Of a stretch of 42,467 nucleotides of DNA, positions 5,279 to 20,583 are shown piece after piece; position 1 is the stretch's first letter, and each line of letters starts with the position of its first letter. The stretch is from a virus, in IMG/VR virus record IMGVR_UViG_3300024432_000030, positions 1 through 42,467 of that record; one strand, written 5' to 3'. The notes beneath the pieces are model-generated. The model was not told the DNA's origin and searched no databases. It saw only the letters and a program-made list of their open reading frames with translations. The position numbers and the translations under genes were made by a program.

Positions 5279-5334
5279 TCGGTGCAATCCTGTGGTCTAA
5301 TTGATTATGTGTAAATAGCATAAAGGGTACAGTC

Positions 5335-5817
5335 ATGAAAAAGTTCTTCTTTCCAATAGCCATGCTGGTCATGGCTGCCCTGGCATACGGCCAGGACTCG
5401 GCACAGCCGCCGAAAGATCTGTCTGGCTTCAGCGGATACGCTTGGGGAGCCGGCATCGAGTTCGTCACCAATCACATGGAAGGCGAAGACTACGATCTGA
5501 TCAGCGCAAGCTGCAAGGATCTCTGGTATCGCGGCAAGCTCCTGAACGAAAAGCTCAGGCTCGTTTACTTATTCGAGGATGGGATGCTCACCAGTGGTAT
5601 CTGGATCTTCGATGACGTAGATTATGAATCGTATTGGCAGGTGAGTGAGTTCCTTCAGAACACGTACAGCACCAACGTCGAGATGACAGTCAAAGGCGAC
5701 GACTGGATCGAGGCCGAGATGTGGCCGAGAGGGACCAATGCTCAGATAGTTCACAACCTGGACGTAGAAGACGACCGTCATGAGGTCCATTACTACTACA
5801 GGAGCGGAGAGGAATAA
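5335..5817 (+). CDS. Secreted/periplasmic protein of unknown function (160 aa)
   Basis: The N-terminus MKKFFFPIAMLVMAALAYGQ is a typical Sec signal peptide, with likely cleavage after AYG. There is no lipobox Cys. The mature part starts with a Pro-rich linker and LSGFSGYAWGAGIEFV, followed by alternating strands. I recall a similar SG.WG..... start in bacterial periplasmic proteins of unknown role. A phage protein exported outside the lysis cassette could act on the envelope or in superinfection exclusion, but this is inference. AAAGGG at 5321-5326 serves as its ribosome site. Confidence 0.85.
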   Translation: MKKFFFPIAMLVMAALAYGQDSAQPPKDLSGFSGYAWGAGIEFVTNHMEGEDYDLISASCKDLWYRGKLLNEKLRLVYLFEDGMLTSGIWIFDDVDYESYWQVSEFLQNTYSTNVEMTVKGDDWIEAEMWPRGTNAQIVHNLDVEDDRHEVHYYYRSGEE

Positions 5818-5818
5818 T

Positions 5819-6073
5819 ATGGACATCACAATCGACAAGGGAATCCCAGTCCCAAAGGAACGACCGAACTTCAAAAGCTACATCGATACGATGGAAGTCG
5901 GAGACTCGTTTCGTGTCGATCCGGAATACTGGACTTCACTCCGCAATGCAGCCAGCAATATGAATAAGCGAACCGAGAAGCGGTTCGTGGTCAACAAGGT
6001 AAAGGAACCTGTGGACCCCAAGAAGCCGGATGGCAAGACTGGTGAGTTCGTCAGGATCTGGCGCAAGAAGTAA
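5819..6073 (+). CDS. Small hypothetical protein (84 aa)
   Basis: The ATG at 5819 lies just after the upstream stop. The product starts MDITIDKGIPVPKERP, then KSYIDTMEVGDSFRVDPEYW and SLRNAASNMNKRTEKRFVV, and ends in a basic strand (EFVRIWRKK). The 'MEVGDSF' turn followed by a helix and a basic strand is typical of small phage proteins of unknown function that may bind DNA. It is the last gene before the non-coding interval with the tRNA-like RNA. Confidence 0.8.
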   Translation: MDITIDKGIPVPKERPNFKSYIDTMEVGDSFRVDPEYWTSLRNAASNMNKRTEKRFVVNKVKEPVDPKKPDGKTGEFVRIWRKK

Positions 6074-6078
6074 ACAGT

Positions 6079-6236
6079 GGAGCGGTGACGAAGCGGCAGC
6101 CGTGCTGGTAGGGAGATTAGACACAACCTCTGTTGTGGAAAGACGTACCAACTCCCAGCGACCAGTGAGCCTGGCTGAATCGACGGACCCCGTTAGATTT
6201 TAGGCTCACGCCCAGGTTCGACTCCTGGGACGCTCC
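6079..6236 (+). ncRNA. tRNA-like structured RNA with expanded anticodon and variable arms
   Basis: A closing stem pairs GGAGCG (6079-6084) with CGCTCC (6231-6236). Then come T6086 and a D-like arm, stem ACG/CGT (6088-6090, 6101-6103) with a GG-containing loop AAGCGGCAGC. CTGGT (6105-6109) pairs with ACCAG (6161-6165) at the exact place of a five-bp anticodon stem. Instead of a 7-nt loop, it encloses 51 nt with a second stem GGGAG/CTCCC (6111-6115, 6152-6156) and a hairpin CACAAC-CTCT-GTTGTG (6122-6137). The variable arm is 6166-6208, with stem TGAGCCTG/TAGGCTCA. The T arm is canonical: CCAGG-TTCGACT-CCTGG (6212-6228). C6236-C6237-A6238 is not in a clean CCA register. It fits no ordinary tRNA length. 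The helices are read by eye, not calculated. Confidence 0.65.
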
Positions 6237-6265
6237 CATTACAACAATAACCGGAGAAGTCCATC

Positions 6266-6787
6266 ATGCAATTCGAGCTGACTCGCACGACCGCCAAGTT
6301 CGGCGTATTCAATCCACGAGAAGAAAAGAACAAAGGCAATGCCTTCGACCTCCCGTTCTCAGTAACCCTGGGATCTGAGGTCCTGGCCATGCTCGCACCC
6401 ACCAACGATGTCGATCAAAAAGACGAGGCCCTGGCCAGCGTAATGTTTACCCAGGAGGGTCACGTTGCCAGGCCATCGATCAATCCCATCGTCATCAATC
6501 GAAAACCAGAAGGCGCGGTTGTCAACATCTGGGATCAGGAAGACTTCGGGGATCCGCTGCAACTAAAACCGTGCAACCTGAAGTCACTGAAGGCTGAGCT
6601 GCAAACTCCCAACCATGTTGTCCTGACCGGGCTGATTCAATACTCGCAGTACAACGACAACGAACTCGTCCGCATCAATGCGCTGATGAACAAGTCATTC
6701 GACCTGGCCATCCACATCGAGCAGACAGATCTATTCGAGGATCCAGAGGCTGAATCCGAGGAGCAGGACGAGGGCTCCGAGGAGTAG
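6266..6787 (+). CDS. Conserved phage protein, acidic tail (173 aa)
   Basis: The start at 6266 has GGAGAAGT as ribosome site. The first 150 residues look like a compact beta-rich domain: TTAKFGVFNPREEK near the N-terminus, LPFSVTLGSEVLAMLAP, and INPIVINRKPEGAVVNIWDQ. The IxRKPEGxxVxVWDQ pattern recurs in unnamed phage proteins near SSB and recombination genes. The last 20 residues are nearly all Glu/Asp. The biochemical role is not known. The acidic tail could serve for protein docking, as in SSB. Confidence 0.85.
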   Translation: MQFELTRTTAKFGVFNPREEKNKGNAFDLPFSVTLGSEVLAMLAPTNDVDQKDEALASVMFTQEGHVARPSINPIVINRKPEGAVVNIWDQEDFGDPLQLKPCNLKSLKAELQTPNHVVLTGLIQYSQYNDNELVRINALMNKSFDLAIHIEQTDLFEDPEAESEEQDEGSEE

Positions 6788-6809
6788 TTCTACCAGGATC
6801 CGCTCAACC

Positions 6810-8393: not shown

Positions 8394-8848
8394 GCGTAAT
8401 CCTCCACTGTGATCCAGACCTGTTCCTCGGCATCCAGGGCATCGACGATCGTCTTGTACAAACGTGTGTACGCGACCACTGAGCTGGTCACCTGGCCGCG
8501 CTCAATCACATTCGATACTTGACCGTCGCCAACCAGGAGACAGCCTTCGGAGTCGTCGTCCTTGTTGCCGACATGGATATAAATGAACTGGAAATCAGGT
8601 ACGTCCTGGAGCCATAGCATTCCCTTGTGGAAATCAAATCGATTGCCGTATCTCACGGTCATGCCGCCCTCAGTTCGCAGCTTGATCTGGTATCTACCAG
8701 GTGGGATTCGAGTCTCGCCTTTGATCTTTGGTTCGTTGAACTGATCTTCTAGCACGTAGCAGATGAACGCAGGCTGATTGCTCACCTCGAACATCGTACC
8801 CAGGGTAGCTTCATCTCCAGATGAGATGCGTCGATTAAGTAGTTCCAT
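8390..8848 (-). CDS. DUF5675 family protein, candidate lysis enzyme
   Basis: The 152-residue protein matches the DUF5675 pattern: an early TLGTMF, then ICYVLED, IKGETRIPPGRYQIKL, HKGMLWLQDVPDF, IYIHVGN and DSEGCLLVGD. The His-Gly-Asn and Ser-x-Gly-Cys pair in the last part recalls the active-site order of L,D-transpeptidase-like folds. DUF5675 genes are often found in phage lysis regions. No lysozyme, amidase or transglycosylase is recognised nearby, so this is the best endolysin candidate, by inference. It follows the giant gene by a TGATG overlap. Confidence 0.85.
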   Translation of the reverse strand: MELLNRRISSGDEATLGTMFEVSNQPAFICYVLEDQFNEPKIKGETRIPPGRYQIKLRTEGGMTVRYGNRFDFHKGMLWLQDVPDFQFIYIHVGNKDDDSEGCLLVGDGQVSNVIERGQVTSSVVAYTRLYKTIVDALDAEEQVWITVEDYA

Positions 8849-11800
8849 CAGACTGAGTTCTCCCGCATGATATTGCGAAGCCTGCTGCTCGGCTTCGTCG
8901 GCAATGAGACCAACAGATCCGCAGTTTTATCCAGACCTTGCTCAGCCAAATAATCAACCCGGTCTTCTGGCGATAGATCTATGAGGGTGTCCTGCAATGC
9001 CTCGAACTGGATAACAGCTCCAGCATTCGGTGGCTCATCCTCTTTATTTTCCGAAGATCCTGGTCGCTCCAACCAACCTTCCTTGGCTTCCTCCAACTTA
9101 TCCCGCAGAAGATTATTCAGCTCTATGCCCTTCTCCTCGCCGCTCATCTCCTCGTCTTCCCACAGCTCCGTGATCTCCTTGCGAATACGCTTCATCTCGT
9201 TGTAGCTGGGCTTCATTGCCTTGGATGCTTCGACGACCTGCTCGTTGGTGAAGGTTGAATCGTATTTTGATGGCTGCTCCATGAACGCATCGATCTCGTC
9301 CTCCATCTCCAGCTTCTCCATCTGGCTGACAGCTCGCTCGATCTCCCTGGCATTCTGGCGTACCTGATAAATGACCTCCTCGAACGAAGTCCTCGATGGC
9401 GGATCATCGCCAGTATAGAAGCGCCTTGCTACAGGCATCTTGTCCCATCTGAGGTCTGGCCTGGCTGGATAATCGAACGACTTCCGAACCAAGTCGTCGC
9501 TCATCATCATCACGTAAGCGCCCAAGGTCCCAAAATATCCACGAACCAGATGTTCAAGAAGTATTGGATTCCTTAACGTCGCTGGGGCCCACTTCGGTAA
9601 TCCCCTGGCAAGCTCGCGAGCTGTCGGACTGGTGGTAGGACGAAAGACGATCTCCGGCTTCACTTCGGCTATGTCCTGCATGTACTCAGGAACGATCGGT
9701 GATTGGAAGAAAGCGTTCCAGTTGTTCGTCGCTTCATACAACGGAGTGATGGCCTGCGGTAAAGGAACAAACGGGAACCGCGGACCCAGGATATTGAAAA
9801 CTTCACCCATGACCCACCACATTCGATCGATCGCTACCTTGCCGGCGTCATCTTCATTGGAGTAGTAATACTCAAACGTGCGCTCGATGCCGACACCAAA
9901 GATCATGCCCAGCTCGAAGGATTTCGGGAGACGCCAGTGCTTGCCATTGGTCCAGAAATGGACGTACATATCCTTGTCGTCTGGAGGTAGTGCCTTGTAT
10001 CTATCATCGTCTTTGTTCTTCAGCCAGATCATCAGTACAGCCATGGCATACATCATTGACTTGGCAAACGTCAGTCCTGGGGCTTCCGTGAATCGCTGTC
10101 CGTATCTAACCAGGCCCTGGACCCTGGCATTGAGGAACATCACGGACTGAACGAAGAATTGCACCGCGGCATGATCACCATGCTTGGCAAAGTTCATCAA
10201 GTCCTTGGCTTCCCAGATTGCCTCGGCCTTGCCGGCACCAGCTTTCATCGCAGGGATGTAGCCAGAACCAATTCGATTGGCATTCTCGGATGCTGCACCG
10301 ATGTCGTTGTACAGGTGGAACAGCTTCCATGGTGCATCCAGGATTCGGTTTTTGAATCCTGTCTGACGCAAGGCTCGCTTCATCGCCTTGACCGTTGATA
10401 CCGGATCGTTGGCGTTGATGTAGCCAGAATAAAAAGCGCCACCGGCAGCCATCATGGCCACCATCTCAGGCGACTTCGTGAACGCTTTCCAGGCTCCGGT
10501 CGCTGCCGACCATGGCTTGGGAAACTTCGCATGACGCGAGTTCGCGAATGCCAAAAAGATGTCTCGGAACCAGTTCGCCGCCATGAAATCTGGAGCGAGC
10601 GTGATCAAGGTGGTGCCGAGGCGCTTAACCTTTCGCAATGGCCACATGAAAAATCGGCCCATCACGCTTGAAAATTTCTTCTCATTGATCGCTGTGAGAG
10701 ATCTCAGCAGCGTTTCTTCTCGGACCTCAAACCATTTTTTCTTTCCGTTGTACAGCACCGAGATGTAGTCATCTCCAACAGGTCGCTGCAAGGTCCACAT
10801 CTTCTGCATGCTCTCCAGTGCTTCGGTGGGCATAGCTTCCCAGTCAACACCAGCTTGCTTGAGCTTACGCTTCAGCTCATCCATAGGGATGAACTCCTCC
10901 TTCAGGAAAGCAGTTGGTGGTGCCGGCACGAGCAGCCCAGAATCTTTGAGATTTTCGACTGCAAGCTGAGCAGCTTTGTTCTTCATCGTCGTCGTCGCGA
11001 TGTGCTGGAAGTTGACGATGATGTTCTCCAGGATGTCACCGAGCGGATGCTTGGCTCCACGGAGACGCTTGATCGGTTGTGCTACGTTCGCAATTCCTGG
11101 GCCGCCCATGCCGGCTCGCTTGGCAAAGGATCCGCCCAACTCGTCGGACTTGATGCGGTAGAACGGCACGTAATCTGCCTGATCCCACAGCGGCCTGGTG
11201 TCTTCGTTGATGACACCTGCCTCTGATGCCCAGTCCAGGAATTGCGTCTTCCAGTCGTTGTATGCGTCAGCCACATCCTGGAACTCAGGAAATCGCTCGC
11301 CTAACTTCAGCAGCTCGTCCACACGCTCCTGGGTGAACAGAGCTTCCCTACCTTCCTTCAGCAGACGATCGGCTCGCCTGGCAGCCATCCAATAGCCCCA
11401 GTACGTGATCTTGTCAGCAACCGGCTCCAGGACCTCCAGGAGACCCTTGCTGCCTGGCTTGATGCCAGTGATCGTGCCCTCACCTTCGGCAGTCGTTACC
11501 GTCTCCCACACCGGAATGCCGTGGGTCAGGAACACGTACATTTGCGAATCCATGCTGGTGGTGAAGTGAGCCTGCTTGTACGCTGACATCTGTGCCGGCA
11601 GCTCGTGACCATGCGTTTGTCTGATTGCCCACTTCAGGCCGGCGAACTGATCGATCAGAGCTTGCTCCAACTTCATCTGTTTACGTTCGATGTTGATGAT
11701 TTCGCTGATCTGTCTTTGCAGTCGCTCAAGCGATCGTGGTCCTGATGGACCGATATTCTTCCTCGCCCATTCGAGCGCATTGTCCAGACCAGTGTCGCCA

Positions 11801-14800
11801 GTCTTCGGCTTGCCTCGTTTGTGGAATAGCGGGAATCCTTTCTTCGCGGTCTCCTCCAGCTTCGGCGTGATCTCAATCTCCCAGGCTTCGTAACCCCAGT
11901 CCTTCTCGCCTTCTTGTCGCATGAGATTGTGCAGGCGCTCAACCGCTCTTGGTTTTCCTGGCAAGAAGCCGGCATGAGTATTAAATTCGTAAAAGCCATC
12001 TTCGGCTCGTGTTTCGATTCCCCAGACGCCTCTATCTTCCAGGTCAAACATCTCCCGGCCTTGTTTCACTAGATCAGAGTCGAGACCACCTTCGATAAAC
12101 CGATGGATTTCAGGAGTCGTCAGTCGCCTGAGCCGTGCGTTATCCCACTTTTCGTATTCGTTGCCAGGCTGACCAAGAGTGGCAACACCTAACCGTTCCG
12201 CCTCATCCCTGGACGATTGACTGTTATCACCAGGCACCCAGACATCCTTCACCTTGCCTTTGAATTTCTTCAGGAACTTGTTGATGCTGTTGACTGCGAC
12301 CTCGTTGTACGTGGTCCTGGATCCACTCAACGTCCTGCTACTACCTCGTGGAACCAGGATGCCCCTTAGACCGGCGTCTTCCGCTCGAATGGTTCCTCTA
12401 TCTTTTTCAGATCCCAGGATGAGCCTGGCTACACGATCACCAACATTCTTCCGAAGCTGCTTGTTGGTCGTCTTCATGTCGAGTTGATTCGCTCCAGGTA
12501 CTAACAGATCGATCGTGAAAGCATCTCCACGTTTGACCGGCGTGATCTCTCCGGTGAAAAGATCTGGTGTTGGATCTTGCTCAACTTCAGGGATTGGATG
12601 CTTAACAAACTCAAGTGATTCAACCGACTCAGCCCCTGACCAGCGAACCCCATGAACCTCGCCCTTGGAAAAGTAGATCCGTGGCATGCCACGCCTGGCC
12701 GCTTCAGCGATCATGTGTTTGATGACCAGTAGCTGCCAATCCTTCTCGAATGGCGCGAAGCTCTGGCCATCTGCATATCTTTGATACTTCCCGATGTTCT
12801 CATCAAAGCTCAGAATTTGAGCGCGGACAGTAGTTTGCAAACCTCTCGGCGCATCGTAATCAAAGAAGCCTGGCACTGGTCCACGCCCAGGCAATGGCTG
12901 ACGGTCAGCAGCCGAAATCTTGTGCATCGCATCAGCCAAACTCGACCAGACCTTCCACAACTCAGATGCGTTGTGTCGATCCCAGTTAGACGAATCGCCG
13001 CTTGCATCTTCGATTAGTTTCGTCCAGGTCGCTTGACTAAAATCTCTCGCTTGAGCGGTCCTGTATATCTTGCCTTGCCTCCTCGTTCCTGCCGGCAGAT
13101 CAGTCTCATCTCGCGTCTCATCCATGAGCTGGGCAATAGCCGTTTCTTCCCGCTCGGCCTCGATTTCCTTCTGCGGCGTTCCGTCCCATTCAGATATAAC
13201 TCGTGGTGAGTTAATAGCTTTACGGTCAATCGTTTGAGCGTTGCCTGCTGCCCACTGTCTCTCCATCCATTCAGAAAAATCGACACCAGCAGTCACGCCT
13301 GTATTTCTGGTCGCATAGATCAAACGAGTGGTTAAACCGTATTCCCTGGCTTGTTGATTCACATACTGATCGAACTCCTCTCTGGAAATCAGCTCAGCGT
13401 TATACTGTTCACCGCGCTCACTTTTTCGCATCTTTCGATAGGCCGCGAACAGTTTGTTGCTCGCCTCACCGAGAGAATGGTAGAAGCCATGGTCCTCAAA
13501 TACTTTGGCTTGAATCTCTCCTTCCTGTTGTTCCAAAGCAGTGTCAGCGGACGCTTGTCTTGAGGCCAGATCCGCTCTATAGCCAGCAAGTAGATCGATT
13601 GAGTTATTTGAGTATTCGCCAGTAAGGACAGCCTGGAGACGCTTTGACATATCCTTCGTCATTGGCCAGGATTTCAGTTCTTCGACGATCGTCTCTCTCG
13701 ACTTAGCGAGGGCCTTAAAATCCTGTTGAGCTAGATCTTTGTGCAGTTGCTTCAGTCTTGGATTATCAAGTGATTCAGCCCTGGCCTTCTCGTACATGAC
13801 CTCTGGAGGTGTGCCATCGTATTCCTCGCCACCACCAAAGGTGCCATCTCTGTTGTCGTAATCCTTATCGAAACCATGCTCAGCGTGAATCTCTTTCAGT
13901 TTGGCCTTGATCGTATCTCGAATCTCCTGATGCCAATCGGACTGCATCTCATCGATGTAGAAAACCTCGTTGCCATCAGGATCTTTGCGAATATCGAAGC
14001 GAACATGAGCTACGAAATTGTCGTCCTCCTCCCAGTGAGCGGTCTCTGTGAACAACTGCTTGTCTGGATTTTCCCAACGGAATAGCAGCACCCCGTAATC
14101 CTTGCCGGCAGGCTTGAGCATGTAGCTTGCCCAGGCATGAGTCTGTTCGTTGTAATGCTCCTCGGCAGCGTCCGCTGCTTCCTCCCAGGTGCTGTAATAA
14201 CCGAGGTCACCGCCCTGATCGTCATAGATTCGGAAGTCGCCATCGTCATCCGTCATCATCTGATAGTTGCCGGAGTACCATCGTCTCTTGGTATTCTTTT
14301 TCTCCCACTCCTCTCGCGCCTCGTCGTAGAAATCTAGTTCGATTGCCTCTCTGGTTTTATCGTTGGCTTCCTCCTCCATGTCTTCTTCGCTGGTCCCATC
14401 CCAGGCACCGAGAGCTTCGTTCAGCTCCTCGGTGTCCATGTCTGCTTCTTCCGGAATGTCCGGATCAGCTTCAAGATCTGGATTCCAGTTATGCTCTGCC
14501 CAGACCTCTCTTTGCTGAGTATCGAAATAGGATCCCCAGTTCTCTGATTCGATGGGCTCCCAATGGTCGTACCACGTATCCTCCTCCGGTGAATCCTCCT
14601 CATCCGGATAGTCTTCGCTCCAGTCAGGTGGGCCGTAGTCTTCTTCTGGATTACCAGGTTCCTTGACCTCGATGTCCACACCATTGCGCTCGATATACGA
14701 TTGAATGATATGCCTTGGGATCTTCTTCGGTTTTGTGCGACCAAACTCTTGGAGCTGGTTGGTCAACTCCTCGTGCCGCTCATCCATCAAAGCAGCATCG

Positions 14801-17800
14801 CGCTGCTCATTGACAGAAAGGAATTGCATCGGATCGTTTTCAGGATTTTTCTTCCAGTCATCCTTGAACTGTTGAGCTTCGCGGTTATATTTCTTGGCCT
14901 GTTTTTCCGTGGTCGGAAAGGCTTCCTCCCATGCTTGCTGCTGAGCAGCCTTGGCCTTCTCTGCAATCCCTTGAATCTCAGCGCCCAGTTCACGCTGCTC
15001 CTTGAAGACCGCAAACATTGGTGGTGGGAACAGCTTCTCAACATCCTCGAAGTTGGTGCGTCGTCCATAGCTGTGGTCTGATGTGAGCTGATACATCTGG
15101 CCCCAGGTAGCCTCGGCCAGCCAACCAGGATTCTTTGCATCACCCAGGCCCAGCCAATCGAGTTCGGCCTGCTTTATCTTTCCATTTTTGAGTTGGCCCT
15201 TCATAAACTGATACCAGCCATCGACAGAGGTGGCTTTAGTATCGGTCTCGTTGAATGCAGTCCACACCTGGGAGAAGAAGTATGGGGCACTGACATGACG
15301 CAGCCGGCCTCGCCGCTTGGATCTCTGATAACCACCTGGTCGTTGCACGAAGTCGCTCGACTGAGCAATGACCGACATGATCTGCCCAGTGGTGAACATC
15401 TGCTCCTGGCCAGTCATCCAGCGAACTACATTCTGTAGAGCCTCGACGATCCTATCCAAGATCTCCCTGGCTCTCTGCGATACGGTCTGTCCAGCCAAGA
15501 TTCGTTGTGCGATGTGAGCTATGTATTCCTCCGCAGCAATCCGGCGCTCCTCAACATCATTCCAGTCCAGCTCGTAACTCCGCGCTGCTTCTCTGACCTG
15601 CTTCGGGAACGACTTGGCCACCATGTCCATGAACTCATCGAATCGCCATGGCGGAATGACTTGCCGGAGGCCGAAGTGACCAACCACTTCATGCAGTAGG
15701 GTCTCGACCGCTTCCGCCATGGAGCTGACGTTATTGGCAATGATGTAAATGTCATCGTTGAAGGCACCCTGGTCATACATCCCGGTGGTGTTTTTCTTGG
15801 AATGCTCGTCCTCCATAGACACCTGGAGATGCCGCGGCAGGTCCTCGATGGACTCGACCACTCGTACCGGAGGCACAGTGCGGAACATCCGATAGATCTT
15901 TTGTAGGATCTGTTGCACATCATCAACGGACTGACCTCTGCCGGCATTCGTCTTACGCCTGGCTCTCGCTGATGGGCCTTTCTTCGTCTCGACTTCGAGT
16001 GGATCAAAGACAGCCGACACCAGGCCGAGACTTGGGTGCTTCAGCCAATAGCCGGAATAGCCGGCGTCACGGATGGCTGCCTCGGATTCATTCAGATCTG
16101 GAGTTGCTGCCAGGTTTTCAGGATCAACCTGGAGGTCATACAACAGACGAGCGTCGATGCTCGTCTCATAGGTCTCAGGCCCTAGTCCCGATTCCTTCCG
16201 ATACCCACCCGGAAGTTCCGGTGAGATACCATAGTACGTGCGGTCGATCCAGGTTTCCGGGAACGCTTGCGCCCTTTGCCCTTCGGCTCCGCGGATCCCT
16301 TGGCCATAGAAGCTGGGATCGATCCGGTCGATGTCGGCTCGCCGGCTGTAGTGCGTGAGGGTGATGCGCCCTTCTGCTGAGACTGGCGGAGCAACAAGCT
16401 CTCCGCCCTCTGTTGGGCGGCTTTCAGGAGTTGGTCGTTTGGCACTTAATCTACCCTCCTCGGACACCCAAACAGGCAGGAGTCCGATCTTCTGGTCAGC
16501 ATACACGGTATCCGCGGCTGATGCTGTGCGGTTCGTCTCACCATGAGGCCCGTAATTGACCCAGCTATTCTGGCCCCTGGTCTCTACGGTCATGGCTCGC
16601 CTGGCAAGCGGTGAATACATTGCTGCGTGGTGCTGCCAAGCGTTCTCCTCGCCCCTGGCGCGGAAGCCAAAGCCATTCGCCAGGTGGCCGAAGTAATCGT
16701 GGACCACTCGAAATATGTCGTTCGCCAGAGCTACCTTGCCAGAGATCTTGTACTTGGTCTCGTTCAGCAGGGGATTATCGATCGCCTCGAACTCAGCCCT
16801 AGTGCCAAAGGCTTCTCGTGTTGGCAAGACCCACAGGTGATTGTTCTCACGGATGTCCAGGATGGCATCTCTGGGGCTCCTGTACGGATCCTTGCCCTTG
16901 ACGAACTCGACCTCCAGGCCGCTCTCCAGGACATACTCATACTGTGCCAGGGTCTCATCGATCATTGCCTGGTAAGCTGCCGCGACAGCCGGATCACTCG
17001 GATCATGCTCCATCCTGGTGAACTCTCTGGCAATCATCGAAGCCCGGCGAACGTCGATCTTGGCTCGCTCTTTTGCTGGTTCGTACTCGATGTCATTGGC
17101 ATCGGCATACGCCTGAGCTGCGTCAATGGCCGGCTGGAATGGACGGAAGTCCACCTCACCTCTGCCAGGCACGAATACCACCTCCGATAGAACGGCAGGT
17201 GTCTTCGTATTGGCAGTCTCCAGCCACTCACGCAGCTCCTCAGTCGTCATCGCGACCACTGAGCCCATCTGTGCGCCACCATCGGTGTAGTTGCGACGGT
17301 ACGCCTCCTGTGCCTCCTCGGTGTCCCGGTAACCGAGCATGATCTTATGCTCGTCGAAGTTCTCCAGGGACATCGGTTTCGCTGGATCCTTCTTCTGGTT
17401 GATGATCACCGCATGGCCTGAATCCAGGTATGGACCAAAGAACGCATCGATCTGATCGAAGCCACCTCGACCATCAGGCTCCCTGCTCTCAGTGCCCTTC
17501 AGGTAGCCGTAGGCATCCTTCATCTTGAATTGCCATGGCTTACCCTTTCGATCAATACCCTTCCTGGTTCCGCCTTTCTTGGTCTCAATCGTTCCAGGAA
17601 TTGAATCGACTCGCAGATGCCCCTTCGGATAGTTGCCGGCCTCGGCCTGCTCTGGGCTCTTTGGTTCCTCTACTCGACGCTGAACGGCATCCAGGCGAGC
17701 CCTGACGGAACTGCGAGATTCAACGACATCAGATCTGAAGACTTCCATCGGGCTGATCTCGTCTTCTTCTGCCACGATCTCTGACCTGAGCATGTCGTAC

Positions 17801-20583
17801 TTTTCGACGAGCTTGTCGATCGCTCCCAGCATCGCATTGATATTCTGCACGGCTGTCACAGAGGCAGGCTTGTTGCGTAAATTGACAAGCAGGCCCTCAA
17901 TGCCCTGACCTTCCTGGAAAGCGGTCTCGATTGCCATATCGGTGACGCCTGGATAGGCCATCCTGAGTCGCTGCCGCACACCAGATCCCCACTCATTACT
18001 GACCATTCGCTTCGGAGCTGTTGGTTCCTTGGCCAATGGATGCGTTTGTAGTTCAGGTAACGGGCCCACGAGATCTTTCAATCGCTCAGGGACTGTCACC
18101 CTGTCAGTGTCATGCTCCGTTTTCGTTACTTGCTCGCCGGCAAACAAGCGCCTGGTTCGTCTCTTGAATCGAACCAACTCCTCGTCCTCGTCTGGCTCGC
18201 CCTTCGCTGCCTCCTGGAATTGCTTCAACAAGATTTCGAGGTCTTTCCTAAGTTTTGCTTCGTCTCCTGCTGGCAGCTTTTCAAACTCCTCGAAGACCGT
18301 CATGATCTCGTCCATCTGCTCAGGAGTTAAGGTACTCCAGCGATTATCGATCTTCGTTTTCAGCGCCGGAGTCATCGCTGTCATGGCCTTTGGATGAGCT
18401 TCCTGGACCTTGGCGTATTCCTCCATCACTCGCTGCGCTCGTCGAACCACGCCTGGCTCAACTGGCTCAGCAATGTCGATCGCTTCGCCGGTTCTCCTGA
18501 TGGTGATCTCCTCACCTTCCATGATGATTTCTTCGCCGGCAGCCCGTTCTCGCAGATTCTTGAGTTCCTTGAGGCCCTTCGGCAGCAGCATCACCCGTTC
18601 CTCGGCACCAACAAACATGCCGTATTTCCCGTTGGTCAGGGTGTATTGCTCATCGATTGTCAGGGGGTCGCCGGCAGCAACACGCTCCAACAGATCCACA
18701 TCAACATCCACCTCAGACAGACCAAGCTCGTCGGCCTCCTCCTTCGAGATTTCTCGGTCCATCTCGGATGGCATTTTCTTCAGTGGTTTACCACCAGGCC
18801 CTGTCTCAGGAAGATCAATCCAACCAGGACCACCATCTGGATCAACATCCCCTTCATCGACCACATCCTTGTAGAGTGGATGCACCGCAGTAGCCAGGGT
18901 GCCACCAACACCGAAACCGATGATGGCTGATCGCCTCAGCATGGCCCTGCCTTCTTCGGTTGTGACAATCTCAACAAGGGCTTCACCGAAGGTCATCTCA
19001 TCCTCGATGATGCCCATGGTGTAGGCTTCCTGAATAAGTTGGGTCACAGGCTCCTGAATCGCCTCAGCGCCTCCAGCCTTGAAGAATCGCTTCAGTAAGG
19101 TGCCACCTCCTTTGGTCAGAATCCCAAGCGGTATTTTCTCAGTCAGCATCTCCGCAGCAGCAAACACGGTGCCATCCAGCGTTGCTTCACTGTGCGATCG
19201 ACCTCGGCTTATTGACTCAGCGTACTGATCAGCGAATACCTGGCCGCCCATAACGGCAAGGCCAAGAGTTGGGCTCCTGGTTACAGCAGTCGTGATCAGC
19301 ATCGGAGACATATTGATCGCGCCTTCGATGATGGCTCCAGCGTAATACTTGGCCGAATCCTCCCGGACATTCGGTTGATAGTTCTGTAGGTATTGAGTCG
19401 CTTCCTGGTGGATCCGCAGACCTTCCTGAAGGTCGGCGTTGTTCTCCGCTTCTTTCAGCATCTCACCGTAATACTCAGCCGGCTCCTTGCCCTGGACGTA
19501 AGCCTCTACCTCAAGGGCAAAGCTATCCTCCGGGGCAACACCTTGGTCTGAAGCAGCCTCCAAAATGTATGCCAGATCTCGTGGCGCATTCAGGAACATC
19601 TTCGCGCCACCATATTGCCGCTTGAATCCCGCTGGTACGTTGGTCAGTGTGTCCCATAGCACCAAACCCCATGGATCTTCCGGCTTTTCTTCCCTCGGTT
19701 CTTTCGGCTCGTCAGGCTTGCGGTTTGCCCACTCCTCCCTGGCTGTCGGAAGGTAATCTGAACGGGCCCCAGCCGCCGCCACCGCTTCTTCCTGGGTAGC
19801 AAAATTCGGATGGATCCAACCTTTCTTCGCCCAGCTACGGGCGCTCTCGATCGCCTCCTCCTGGGAAACCTGCTTGCCATTTACCATGGATGGGATATTG
19901 AACCAGCGGCCATCAGCGTCGATCGTTATGCTGAGTTCGCTGGACGAACTGCCATCTGGATTTTGAACAATCGGCCTGGTTGGATCGATCAGGAAACCTG
20001 CTTGATCCTTTGGATACCTGGCCCATTGCTCTCGCTCTTTCTTCAGCCGGCCTTCGGGAGATGGCCTGCCTGGAGTATCTGCATTCGGGCGCAGATAATC
20101 ATTCAGTGCGTTCTCTACTTCATTTTCTGGTGGCTCCTCCAAGCCGGCGCGTACCAGGGCAGAATGCGGTGCCGGCCTGGAACTGCCAAAGCTAAACTGA
20201 CCACCACCTTTGTTGCTGAACAGCTCACGATTGAGCTTGATGTTGTCCTTGGTGATCTGCTGGCGTTCTTCACGAGTAGGAGCGTTTCGCTTCATCTCGG
20301 CTTTCGTTTCATCACGCCACGCCTGGAACGAATCGAATGCACGAGTCAGGAAACCAGGCTCCTCGTCTGATCCAATATCAATACGACTCACCGGAGACGC
20401 TATATCTTCGGTTTCCGCAACAATCGACAAGGGCTCTGGCTTTGGAATTGCAGCCGGAGGTGGAGCCTGAATCTCTGGTTCGTCGGCTTCACCTCCGATC
20501 GATAAAAGCCCTGGCTTCGGAGCTGCCGCTAAAGGCTCCTGCTCCTCCTCGTCTTCTTCGGATATGATTGAAAGCTCTGCCAT
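8848..20583 (-). CDS. Giant polyvalent virion protein (3911 aa)
   Basis: A protein of roughly 440 kDa, probably ejected with the DNA. Domains in order: low-complexity start with repeated PKPxxLSI; a common internal-protein segment (about 210-280, SITIDADGRWFNIP); a hydrophobic helical region (about 415-575); an inorganic-pyrophosphatase-like domain (985-1130, YPKGHLRVDSIPGTIE); a domain with HDYFGH at 1295-1300; an ADP-ribosyltransferase-like domain (1405-1535, LTHYS, GYSGYWL); a zinc metallopeptidase HEVVGH (1631-1636); an acidic linker; the common DEMQSDWH domain (2211-2218, with PFEKDWQ at about 2611); and a C-terminal LPD38-like region (about 2930-3700, PDFMAANWFRD). This matches the polyvalent-protein class known from phages and conjugative elements. 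No frameshift is visible. It overlaps both neighbours by stop/start fusions. Confidence 0.93.
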   Translation of the reverse strand: MAELSIISEEDEEEQEPLAAAPKPGLLSIGGEADEPEIQAPPPAAIPKPEPLSIVAETEDIASPVSRIDIGSDEEPGFLTRAFDSFQAWRDETKAEMKRNAPTREERQQITKDNIKLNRELFSNKGGGQFSFGSSRPAPHSALVRAGLEEPPENEVENALNDYLRPNADTPGRPSPEGRLKKEREQWARYPKDQAGFLIDPTRPIVQNPDGSSSSELSITIDADGRWFNIPSMVNGKQVSQEEAIESARSWAKKGWIHPNFATQEEAVAAAGARSDYLPTAREEWANRKPDEPKEPREEKPEDPWGLVLWDTLTNVPAGFKRQYGGAKMFLNAPRDLAYILEAASDQGVAPEDSFALEVEAYVQGKEPAEYYGEMLKEAENNADLQEGLRIHQEATQYLQNYQPNVREDSAKYYAGAIIEGAINMSPMLITTAVTRSPTLGLAVMGGQVFADQYAESISRGRSHSEATLDGTVFAAAEMLTEKIPLGILTKGGGTLLKRFFKAGGAEAIQEPVTQLIQEAYTMGIIEDEMTFGEALVEIVTTEEGRAMLRRSAIIGFGVGGTLATAVHPLYKDVVDEGDVDPDGGPGWIDLPETGPGGKPLKKMPSEMDREISKEEADELGLSEVDVDVDLLERVAAGDPLTIDEQYTLTNGKYGMFVGAEERVMLLPKGLKELKNLRERAAGEEIIMEGEEITIRRTGEAIDIAEPVEPGVVRRAQRVMEEYAKVQEAHPKAMTAMTPALKTKIDNRWSTLTPEQMDEIMTVFEEFEKLPAGDEAKLRKDLEILLKQFQEAAKGEPDEDEELVRFKRRTRRLFAGEQVTKTEHDTDRVTVPERLKDLVGPLPELQTHPLAKEPTAPKRMVSNEWGSGVRQRLRMAYPGVTDMAIETAFQEGQGIEGLLVNLRNKPASVTAVQNINAMLGAIDKLVEKYDMLRSEIVAEEDEISPMEVFRSDVVESRSSVRARLDAVQRRVEEPKSPEQAEAGNYPKGHLRVDSIPGTIETKKGGTRKGIDRKGKPWQFKMKDAYGYLKGTESREPDGRGGFDQIDAFFGPYLDSGHAVIINQKKDPAKPMSLENFDEHKIMLGYRDTEEAQEAYRRNYTDGGAQMGSVVAMTTEELREWLETANTKTPAVLSEVVFVPGRGEVDFRPFQPAIDAAQAYADANDIEYEPAKERAKIDVRRASMIAREFTRMEHDPSDPAVAAAYQAMIDETLAQYEYVLESGLEVEFVKGKDPYRSPRDAILDIRENNHLWVLPTREAFGTRAEFEAIDNPLLNETKYKISGKVALANDIFRVVHDYFGHLANGFGFRARGEENAWQHHAAMYSPLARRAMTVETRGQNSWVNYGPHGETNRTASAADTVYADQKIGLLPVWVSEEGRLSAKRPTPESRPTEGGELVAPPVSAEGRITLTHYSRRADIDRIDPSFYGQGIRGAEGQRAQAFPETWIDRTYYGISPELPGGYRKESGLGPETYETSIDARLLYDLQVDPENLAATPDLNESEAAIRDAGYSGYWLKHPSLGLVSAVFDPLEVETKKGPSARARRKTNAGRGQSVDDVQQILQKIYRMFRTVPPVRVVESIEDLPRHLQVSMEDEHSKKNTTGMYDQGAFNDDIYIIANNVSSMAEAVETLLHEVVGHFGLRQVIPPWRFDEFMDMVAKSFPKQVREAARSYELDWNDVEERRIAAEEYIAHIAQRILAGQTVSQRAREILDRIVEALQNVVRWMTGQEQMFTTGQIMSVIAQSSDFVQRPGGYQRSKRRGRLRHVSAPYFFSQVWTAFNETDTKATSVDGWYQFMKGQLKNGKIKQAELDWLGLGDAKNPGWLAEATWGQMYQLTSDHSYGRRTNFEDVEKLFPPPMFAVFKEQRELGAEIQGIAEKAKAAQQQAWEEAFPTTEKQAKKYNREAQQFKDDWKKNPENDPMQFLSVNEQRDAALMDERHEELTNQLQEFGRTKPKKIPRHIIQSYIERNGVDIEVKEPGNPEEDYGPPDWSEDYPDEEDSPEEDTWYDHWEPIESENWGSYFDTQQREVWAEHNWNPDLEADPDIPEEADMDTEELNEALGAWDGTSEEDMEEEANDKTREAIELDFYDEAREEWEKKNTKRRWYSGNYQMMTDDDGDFRIYDDQGGDLGYYSTWEEAADAAEEHYNEQTHAWASYMLKPAGKDYGVLLFRWENPDKQLFTETAHWEEDDNFVAHVRFDIRKDPDGNEVFYIDEMQSDWHQEIRDTIKAKLKEIHAEHGFDKDYDNRDGTFGGGEEYDGTPPEVMYEKARAESLDNPRLKQLHKDLAQQDFKALAKSRETIVEELKSWPMTKDMSKRLQAVLTGEYSNNSIDLLAGYRADLASRQASADTALEQQEGEIQAKVFEDHGFYHSLGEASNKLFAAYRKMRKSERGEQYNAELISREEFDQYVNQQAREYGLTTRLIYATRNTGVTAGVDFSEWMERQWAAGNAQTIDRKAINSPRVISEWDGTPQKEIEAEREETAIAQLMDETRDETDLPAGTRRQGKIYRTAQARDFSQATWTKLIEDASGDSSNWDRHNASELWKVWSSLADAMHKISAADRQPLPGRGPVPGFFDYDAPRGLQTTVRAQILSFDENIGKYQRYADGQSFAPFEKDWQLLVIKHMIAEAARRGMPRIYFSKGEVHGVRWSGAESVESLEFVKHPIPEVEQDPTPDLFTGEITPVKRGDAFTIDLLVPGANQLDMKTTNKQLRKNVGDRVARLILGSEKDRGTIRAEDAGLRGILVPRGSSRTLSGSRTTYNEVAVNSINKFLKKFKGKVKDVWVPGDNSQSSRDEAERLGVATLGQPGNEYEKWDNARLRRLTTPEIHRFIEGGLDSDLVKQGREMFDLEDRGVWGIETRAEDGFYEFNTHAGFLPGKPRAVERLHNLMRQEGEKDWGYEAWEIEITPKLEETAKKGFPLFHKRGKPKTGDTGLDNALEWARKNIGPSGPRSLERLQRQISEIINIERKQMKLEQALIDQFAGLKWAIRQTHGHELPAQMSAYKQAHFTTSMDSQMYVFLTHGIPVWETVTTAEGEGTITGIKPGSKGLLEVLEPVADKITYWGYWMAARRADRLLKEGREALFTQERVDELLKLGERFPEFQDVADAYNDWKTQFLDWASEAGVINEDTRPLWDQADYVPFYRIKSDELGGSFAKRAGMGGPGIANVAQPIKRLRGAKHPLGDILENIIVNFQHIATTTMKNKAAQLAVENLKDSGLLVPAPPTAFLKEEFIPMDELKRKLKQAGVDWEAMPTEALESMQKMWTLQRPVGDDYISVLYNGKKKWFEVREETLLRSLTAINEKKFSSVMGRFFMWPLRKVKRLGTTLITLAPDFMAANWFRDIFLAFANSRHAKFPKPWSAATGAWKAFTKSPEMVAMMAAGGAFYSGYINANDPVSTVKAMKRALRQTGFKNRILDAPWKLFHLYNDIGAASENANRIGSGYIPAMKAGAGKAEAIWEAKDLMNFAKHGDHAAVQFFVQSVMFLNARVQGLVRYGQRFTEAPGLTFAKSMMYAMAVLMIWLKNKDDDRYKALPPDDKDMYVHFWTNGKHWRLPKSFELGMIFGVGIERTFEYYYSNEDDAGKVAIDRMWWVMGEVFNILGPRFPFVPLPQAITPLYEATNNWNAFFQSPIVPEYMQDIAEVKPEIVFRPTTSPTARELARGLPKWAPATLRNPILLEHLVRGYFGTLGAYVMMMSDDLVRKSFDYPARPDLRWDKMPVARRFYTGDDPPSRTSFEEVIYQVRQNAREIERAVSQMEKLEMEDEIDAFMEQPSKYDSTFTNEQVVEASKAMKPSYNEMKRIRKEITELWEDEEMSGEEKGIELNNLLRDKLEEAKEGWLERPGSSENKEDEPPNAGAVIQFEALQDTLIDLSPEDRVDYLAEQGLDKTADLLVSLPTKPSSRLRNIMRENSV

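What the first reader, a model, noticed from the sequence alone, without database searches (positions are those of the whole stretch)
6079..6236. tRNA-like RNA with a structured anticodon arm and an oversized variable arm
A cloverleaf can be drawn from plain base pairs. It has an acceptor-like stem (6079-6084/6231-6236), a D-like arm with a GG-containing loop, a five-bp stem CTGGT/ACCAG exactly where the anticodon stem should be, and a canonical T arm with TTCGACT loop. The anticodon loop is replaced by 51 nt with further stems. The variable arm is 43 nt long with an eight-bp stem. The 5' half resembles a class II (Ser/Leu-type) tRNA. Such an RNA could be a tRNA with an unusual insertion, a decoy for synthetases or processing enzymes, or a new phage RNA class. 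I cannot assign an anticodon.
Basis: partly seen in the sequence, partly recalled or inferred. Interest (0 to 1): 0.8.

Follow-up and report, generated by a model that had tools for sequence, protein, structure and literature searches.

The report
Anticodon-less tRNA-mimic RNA in phages
A small group of uncultivated phages carries a strictly conserved RNA that copies the body of a transfer RNA but has a branched, fast-changing structure where the codon-reading loop should be, so it cannot decode and more likely acts as a tRNA look-alike than as a tRNA.

Summary
An RNA of about 159 nt (6079-6237, +) sits between two co-directional genes and recurs at the same place in five IMG/VR contigs (four distinct sequences counting the window). 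A 65-nt tRNA-like core (acceptor, D arm, anticodon stem, T arm) is 95-100% identical, although third codon positions of the next gene are only 58-71% identical. The anticodon-loop domain (40-74 nt) and the variable arm (26-43 nt) change in sequence and length yet keep their stems, with four compensatory pairs. The tertiary-contact bases (U8, A14, G15-C48, G18G19, TTCRA) are present; U33, a 7-nt anticodon loop and a regular acceptor are not. ARAGORN and Rfam tRNA, tRNA-Sec and YrlA models do not accept it. An intron is unlikely: no splice restores a conserved U33. It is a new tRNA-mimic RNA family, close in design to T4 rnaC and to bacterial Y RNAs (YrlA) but homologous to neither by these tests. 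A distant relative phage lacks it and instead carries YrlA-like RNAs beside a Ro60 gene. Best guess for function: a stable tRNA decoy against a tRNA-binding or tRNA-cleaving host enzyme (inferred, about 0.4). mRNA punctuation and a Y-RNA-like scaffold are live rivals.

The parts
6079..6237 (+). whole tRNA-like RNA (158 nt plus the unpaired C after the acceptor)
   Evidence: conserved block in 4 distinct phage sequences; CM R1 hits end to end
6079..6084 (+). acceptor stem 5' strand GGAGCG
   Evidence: pairs with 6231-6236; invariant in 4 sequences
6231..6236 (+). acceptor stem 3' strand CGCTCC; next base C (6237) conserved; CCA not encoded in register
   Evidence: sequence after it CA/CC/CA/CA
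6088..6103 (+). D arm: stem ACG/CGT, loop with A14, G15, G18G19; U8 at 6086
   Evidence: sequence; invariant except two positions in L007
6104..6109 (+). anticodon-stem 5' strand GCTGGT (G26 plus 27-31)
   Evidence: pairs with 6161-6166; GU to GC change at the outer pair in L006
6161..6166 (+). anticodon-stem 3' strand ACCAGT
6110..6160 (+). domain in place of the anticodon loop (51 nt here; 74, 40 and 72 nt in L004, L006, L007)
   Evidence: each homologue folds on its own into the same plan: 1-nt + 5-6 bp helix + 4-6 nt linker + hairpin + return strand
6111..6115 (+). inner helix 5' strand GGGAG, pairs with 6152-6156 (CTCCC)
   Evidence: 2 double changes and 1 G-U in L006, in register
6152..6156 (+). 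inner helix 3' strand CTCCC
6122..6137 (+). apical hairpin CACAAC-CTCT-GTTGTG; sequence not conserved, hairpin present in all four
6166..6208 (+). oversized variable arm (43 nt; 26, 26 and 42 nt in L004, L006, L007)
   Evidence: z -3.68 here, -2.42 in L007, not significant in the short versions; 2 compensatory pairs
6211..6229 (+). T arm CCCAGG-TTCGACT-CCTGGG (C48 at 6211, T stem 6212-6216/6224-6228)
   Evidence: canonical T loop; single T arm in the window
5819..6073 (+). upstream gene, 84 aa (weak match to phrog_10287, unknown function)
   Evidence: conserved neighbour in all contigs with the RNA
6266..6787 (+). downstream gene, 173 aa, no known family
   Evidence: conserved neighbour, 78-91% aa identity in the distinct relatives

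Best explanation
This is a phage gene for a structured RNA that mimics the body of a class II tRNA. Shown: a conserved tRNA elbow (D loop/T loop nucleotides), a 6-bp acceptor and an anticodon stem; a branched helical domain in place of the anticodon loop; a large variable arm; both of these evolve fast while keeping helices. Inferred from known biochemistry: it is cut out of the operon transcript by RNase P and RNase Z and modified like a tRNA. Proposed function: it cannot decode, so it acts as a stable tRNA look-alike that occupies a host tRNA-binding protein. The most attractive target is a tRNA-cleaving defence nuclease that cuts the anticodon arm or variable arm, because exactly those two regions are remodelled and variable while the recognition body is frozen.
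For: Core 95-100% identical against 58-71% at third codon positions. Covarying inner helix and variable arm. Same architecture in four inserts. One T arm per phage, only at this RNA, and no ordinary tRNA found by ARAGORN in the fetched sequence of the carrier phages. No conserved U33, so no decoding. [quoted passage not shown] the title of a paper cited there says that OLD amputates the anticodon arm; the YrlA tRNA mimic is proposed as a competitive inhibitor of an anticodon nuclease (PMC7790460). Relatives by capsid carry other tRNA-like equipment: over 20 tRNAs in G025, YrlA-like RNAs plus Ro60 in G022.
Against: No expression, processing or binding data. The host is unknown, so no target nuclease is identified. 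Only four distinct sequences are known. The core helices never vary, so conservation rather than covariation supports them. The RNA also sits right before a ribosome-binding site, which fits cis roles equally well. The acceptor is irregular (G.A mismatch, 8-nt 3' strand), so processing by RNase P/Z is not certain.
Confidence: 0.4

Rival explanations
1. Messenger punctuation: the tRNA-like fold is a processing signal. RNase P and RNase Z cut at its ends and set the 5' end (and stability) of the mRNA for the 173-aa gene and the 3' end of the upstream mRNA; the RNA itself is a by-product.
For: Intergenic in an operon, 29 nt before the downstream start codon; no promoter-like site found in 5300-6800. 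Streptomyces camviruses carry 8 intergenic mini tRNA-like elements each between small genes, with covarying acceptor and T stems, which look like natural RNase P minihelix substrates.
Against: A minihelix would be enough; the elaborate, length-variable anticodon domain and variable arm are not explained. In L006 and L007 the distance to the gene is about 137 nt. Single copy.
Confidence: 0.22
2. Y-RNA-like scaffold: the tRNA-like body is one binding module and the extended anticodon domain another, tethering a host RNA-binding protein (Ro60/Rsr or similar) to a nuclease such as PNPase, as YrlA does but with unpermuted ends.
For: Same overall design as YrlA (tRNA body plus extended helical stem at the anticodon end). 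A relative phage, G022, has YrlA-like RNAs directly upstream of a Ro60 gene.
Against: No YrlA match (E<=5), no TROVE gene in any of the window and six related records, different strand order, and the tip of the extended arm is not conserved as a Ro60 site would be.
Confidence: 0.15
3. Cis-acting operator: the folded leader is bound by the 173-aa protein or by a host synthetase or RNA-binding protein to control translation of the 173-aa gene.
For: Immediately upstream of that gene in all carriers.
Against: Spacing to the gene varies from 29 to about 137 nt; a closed acceptor with exact ends and T-loop/D-loop contacts is more than an operator needs.
Confidence: 0.12
4. A working tRNA with an unusual short intron, or a chargeable tRNA used outside normal decoding.
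For: Body with class II features; very weak tRNA-Sec model scores at the spot (E 0.12-2).
Against: No splice leaves a conserved U33 or a common anticodon. RF00005 gives no match. Discriminator C without G-1 and irregular acceptor. No tRNA-processing family listed among the 74 proteins scanned from the longest carrier.
Confidence: 0.07

Closest known systems
Phage T4 stable RNA rnaC (species 1 RNA, AF158101 70908-71046)
   Same: Phage RNA of similar size (139 nt) with canonical T arm, oversized variable-arm-like hairpin (10 bp) and a long extended arm where the D/anticodon arms would be (predicted fold z -4.57); a review states its biological role is unknown (PMC3014915).
   Different: No match to the covariance model; no clear D arm; lies in a tRNA cluster; different acceptor.
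Bacterial and phage Y RNA YrlA (Rfam RF02553)
   Same: tRNA body that cannot decode, with a long extra stem at the anticodon end; also found in a distant relative phage.
   Different: YrlA is circularly permuted (ends in the long stem, T arm before D arm), is associated with Ro60/Rsr, and its model does not match here.
Allo-tRNAs and irregular metagenomic tRNAs (reviewed in PMC7609411)
   Same: Class II, non-canonical acceptor/T stack, some proposed not to work in translation and to be linked to mobile elements.
   Different: Allo-tRNAs keep an anticodon and have 8/4 or 9/3 stacks; none described in that review section has a branched insertion in place of the anticodon loop.
Phage-encoded tRNAs that neutralise PARIS, retron-Eco7 or Septu
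   Same: Phage tRNA-shaped RNAs that counter tRNA-cleaving defences (works-like comparison only; PMC13096335).
   Different: Those are complete decoding tRNAs.
tRNA-Sec (Rfam RF01852)
   Same: Long variable arm, 13-layer acceptor/T stack possible here (6 bp + G.A + 6 bp); weak sub-threshold score at the spot.
   Different: No UCA anticodon loop, no 6-bp D stem, score 9.6-12.8 against cut-off 47.

Membership tests
decoding tRNA | 7-nt anticodon loop with U33 and an anticodon | tested here: not met
   51/74/40/72-nt structured domain; no register gives conserved U33
decoding tRNA | tRNA elbow nucleotides (U8-A14, G15-C48, G18G19 with TTCRA) | tested here: met
   present in all four distinct sequences; position 21 is G in three, A in L007
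decoding tRNA | 7-bp acceptor, N73 and CCA | tested here: not met
   6 Watson-Crick pairs plus G.A, 8-nt 3' strand, C then A or C; CCA addition not testable
decoding tRNA | recognised by tRNA models (ARAGORN, RF00005) | tested here: not met
intron-containing tRNA | removable insertion restoring one anticodon in all homologues | tested here: not met
   ARAGORN -i: none at default; inconsistent anticodons when relaxed
tRNA-Sec / allo-tRNA | 13-bp or 8/4, 9/3 acceptor-T stack with anticodon | tested here: not met
   RF01852 far below cut-off; no anticodon; stack length ambiguous
YrlA Y RNA | match to RF02553 | tested here: not met
   no match at E<=5; the same kind of search does score the relative G022; a permuted relative would be missed by this model
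YrlA Y RNA | Ro60/TROVE gene nearby | tested here: not met
   none in G000-G006; present in G022
YrlA Y RNA | 5' and 3' ends paired in the Ro60-binding stem, permuted tRNA order | tested here: not met
   ends pair in the acceptor; order D arm, anticodon stem, variable arm, T arm
T4 rnaC | sequence/structure homology | tested here: not met
   CM R1 does not hit L150; architecture alike
tmRNA | tRNA-like end plus tag ORF and pseudoknots | tested here: not met
   no tmRNA call; insert far too short
anti-defence tRNA decoy | binds or protects against a tRNA nuclease | not testable with these tools
   needs experiment

The most novel reading that the evidence does not exclude
The first phage RNA that is a tRNA mimic with unpermuted tRNA order and a protein- or RNA-binding domain grafted in place of the anticodon loop: a dedicated inhibitor of tRNA-targeting immunity whose anticodon domain and variable arm are under arms-race evolution.
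Probability: 0.25. Interest if true: 0.85.

Novelty: new variant of a known kind. Interest (0 to 1): 0.62.

Why it matters
tRNA-targeting phage defences (PARIS, retron-Eco7/Septu, OLD, PrrC/RloC) are an active field. An anticodon-less tRNA mimic with a frozen body and fast-evolving anticodon and variable arms would be a natural RNA inhibitor of such enzymes, and the family gives defined sequences to test. It also suggests that T4 rnaC, of unknown role, and phage Y RNAs may belong to one functional theme.

Tried and rejected
Intron reading: rejected, no conserved U33 or anticodon. Pseudogene: rejected, core conserved more than coding DNA. attP tRNA fragment: both halves are conserved and no integrase family was listed among the scanned proteins of the longest carrier. 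tmRNA: no call. Chance T arm: 0.17 expected. Wider homologues: looser D-arm, T-arm and insert patterns over IMG/VR gave no further true members (the one extra hit, L013, is a lone D-arm match without the rest of the RNA); GTDB contigs 0; phages and plasmids no real match. The CM hit in G022 (E 1.9e-4) is an ordinary tRNA-Met. A 17-nt similarity at the syntenic gap of G022 is not significant enough to call a remnant (17-78 of 1000 shuffles). ARAGORN -i call at c40102-40258 lies elsewhere and is taken as chance. The extra leader in L006/L007 does not fold better than shuffles.

Full report
What is there. The window is a linear fragment of an uncultivated tailed phage (IMG/VR). ARAGORN and all 4227 Rfam models are silent.

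Is it real. Relatives of the 173-aa protein were found in six IMG/VR contigs. Five hold the RNA at the same place: two identical to the window, and L004, L006 and L007 distinct; the sixth contig (L005) ends 103 nt upstream of the gene. In the four distinct sequences the tRNA-like core of 65 nt is 95-100% identical to the window, while third codon positions of the neighbouring gene are 58-71% identical. This is strong purifying selection on the RNA core. Outside the core the RNA changes freely in sequence and length: the domain in place of the anticodon loop is 51, 74, 40 and 72 nt, the variable arm 43, 26, 26 and 42 nt. Both keep their helices. Inner helix GGGAG/CTCCC is GAGGG/CCCTT in L006, in register, with the same 1-nt and 4-nt joints; the variable arm has A-U to G-C and G-C to A-U swaps. 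Four pairs have double changes, all cells pair, and 2 of 500 shuffles do as well; slid controls pair at 37-48%. The core helices are invariant, so covariation is silent about them; they rest on conservation and on tRNA-specific bases.

Is the body tRNA-like. Read in standard numbering from G1 = 6079: U8, A14, G15, G18G19, C48, G53-C61, TTCRACT with A58; D stem ACG/CGT; position 26 can pair with 44. All are in the four sequences (position 21 is G in three, A in L007). The acceptor is not regular: six Watson-Crick pairs, then G7 opposite A, and a 3' strand one base longer than usual, so the acceptor/T stack has about 13 layers if C48 pairs with G66, or an 8-bp acceptor with G.A and U.G. No CCA is encoded in register. 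RF00005 gives no match, and RF01852 (tRNA-Sec) gives only sub-threshold scores of 9.6-12.8 bits at the spot.

Can it decode. So it is neither an ordinary nor an intron-bearing translational tRNA.

Who has it. Further pattern scans of IMG/VR with loosened D-arm, T-arm and insert motifs return the same contigs, apart from one lone D-arm match without the rest of the RNA. GTDB genome contigs returned nothing for the DNA pattern or the 173-aa protein. A covariance model (R1) run over 48 phage records chosen through the capsid protein and neighbours finds only these five; its one other hit is an ordinary tRNA-Met. A more distant relative, G022, has homologues of both neighbour genes side by side with a gap of about 80 nt and no such RNA, so the RNA was gained or lost. 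The nearest isolates by capsid are Roseobacter phages CRP-901/902, Pelagibacter HTVC023P and Planktothrix Pag-Yong1; the four isolates searched have no match. The host is not known.

Context. ARAGORN finds no ordinary tRNA in the fetched sequence of the carrier phages, and they have exactly one full T arm, in this RNA. The relative G025 instead has over 20 ordinary tRNAs. The relative G022 has a cluster of RNAs scoring against YrlA (best 32.8 bits, E 3.8e-5, below the gathering score) directly before a Ro60/TROVE gene. Scans of 74 proteins of the longest carrier (72.8 kb) show replication and recombination genes but no tRNA-processing family among the listed hits, and TROVE is absent from the window and the six related records. 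So phages of this wider capsid group use different tRNA-like equipment, which points to recurring conflict or cooperation with tRNA enzymes (inference).

Mechanism. Shown: a selected, structured RNA with a conserved tRNA elbow, no anticodon, and two variable structured arms. Inferred from established tRNA biology: excision by RNase P and RNase Z and tRNA-type modification. Proposed: a decoy or competitor for a tRNA-binding host protein. [quoted passage not shown] a 2025 paper cited there reports in its title that OLD amputates the anticodon arm; and the YrlA mimic has been proposed as a competitive inhibitor of an anticodon nuclease (PMC7790460). The two arms remodelled here are the two sites those nucleases cut. 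No direct evidence exists for binding. The main rival is mRNA punctuation, encouraged by the Streptomyces camviruses, which carry eight covarying mini tRNA-like elements each between small genes; next is a Y-RNA-like scaffold.

Known kinds. T4 rnaC is the closest in architecture (canonical T arm, oversized variable-type hairpin, long arm instead of anticodon arm), and a review states that its role is unknown (PMC3014915); the model R1 does not match it. YrlA works by a similar idea (tRNA body plus a long stem at the anticodon side; PMC8394870) but is permuted and Ro60-linked; the membership tests made here fail, with the caveat that a YrlA model would not see a permuted relative. I therefore rate it a new family of a known kind, the tRNA-mimic noncoding RNAs.

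Noticed in passing
L151 (Saftant NC_054675) 42915-47493 and L152 (Sitrop MT701598) 40820-45086, - strand: Eight copies per genome of an intergenic mini tRNA-like element (acceptor-like stem with bulge, GGCA D-loop-like stretch, full T arm, no anticodon arm), one between successive small genes; T and acceptor stems differ between copies but stay paired. Resembles natural RNase P minihelix substrates. One copy overlaps an annotated tRNA-Arg; one paper search found no description.
   Followed up: partly
G022 (IMGVR_UViG_3300037755_000349) 67700-68230 = L134:7700-8230; Ro60 at G022:68754-69389: Tandem cluster of about four YrlA-like tRNA-mimic Y RNAs directly upstream of a phage-encoded Ro60 (TROVE) protein; one is called tRNA-Asn by ARAGORN, probably wrongly.
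   Followed up: partly
G025 (IMGVR_UViG_3300037478_000343), L158:9805-14204: Cluster of over 20 ordinary tRNAs covering many amino acids in a relative by capsid.
   Followed up: no
T4 AF158101 70908-71046 (rnaC): Predicted fold has a canonical T arm, a 10-bp variable-type hairpin and a long arm replacing D and anticodon arms; z -4.57.
   Followed up: partly
L006:4862-4990, L007:4864-4985, L005:1-90: Extra leader of about 100 nt between the RNA and the 173-aa gene; L006 and L007 share GGAGGTGGC...GAACGCCTCC; folding not better than shuffles in these two, but z -2.91 in L005.
   Followed up: partly
window 8848-20583, - strand: Single open reading frame of 3911 aa, more than a quarter of the window.
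   Followed up: no
G022 gap between the 84-aa and 173-aa homologues (L131:13670-13742): 17-nt similarity to the 5' part of the RNA core (AGCCGCGACGATGCGGC); 17-78 of 1000 shuffles as good, so undecided whether it is a remnant.
   Followed up: yes
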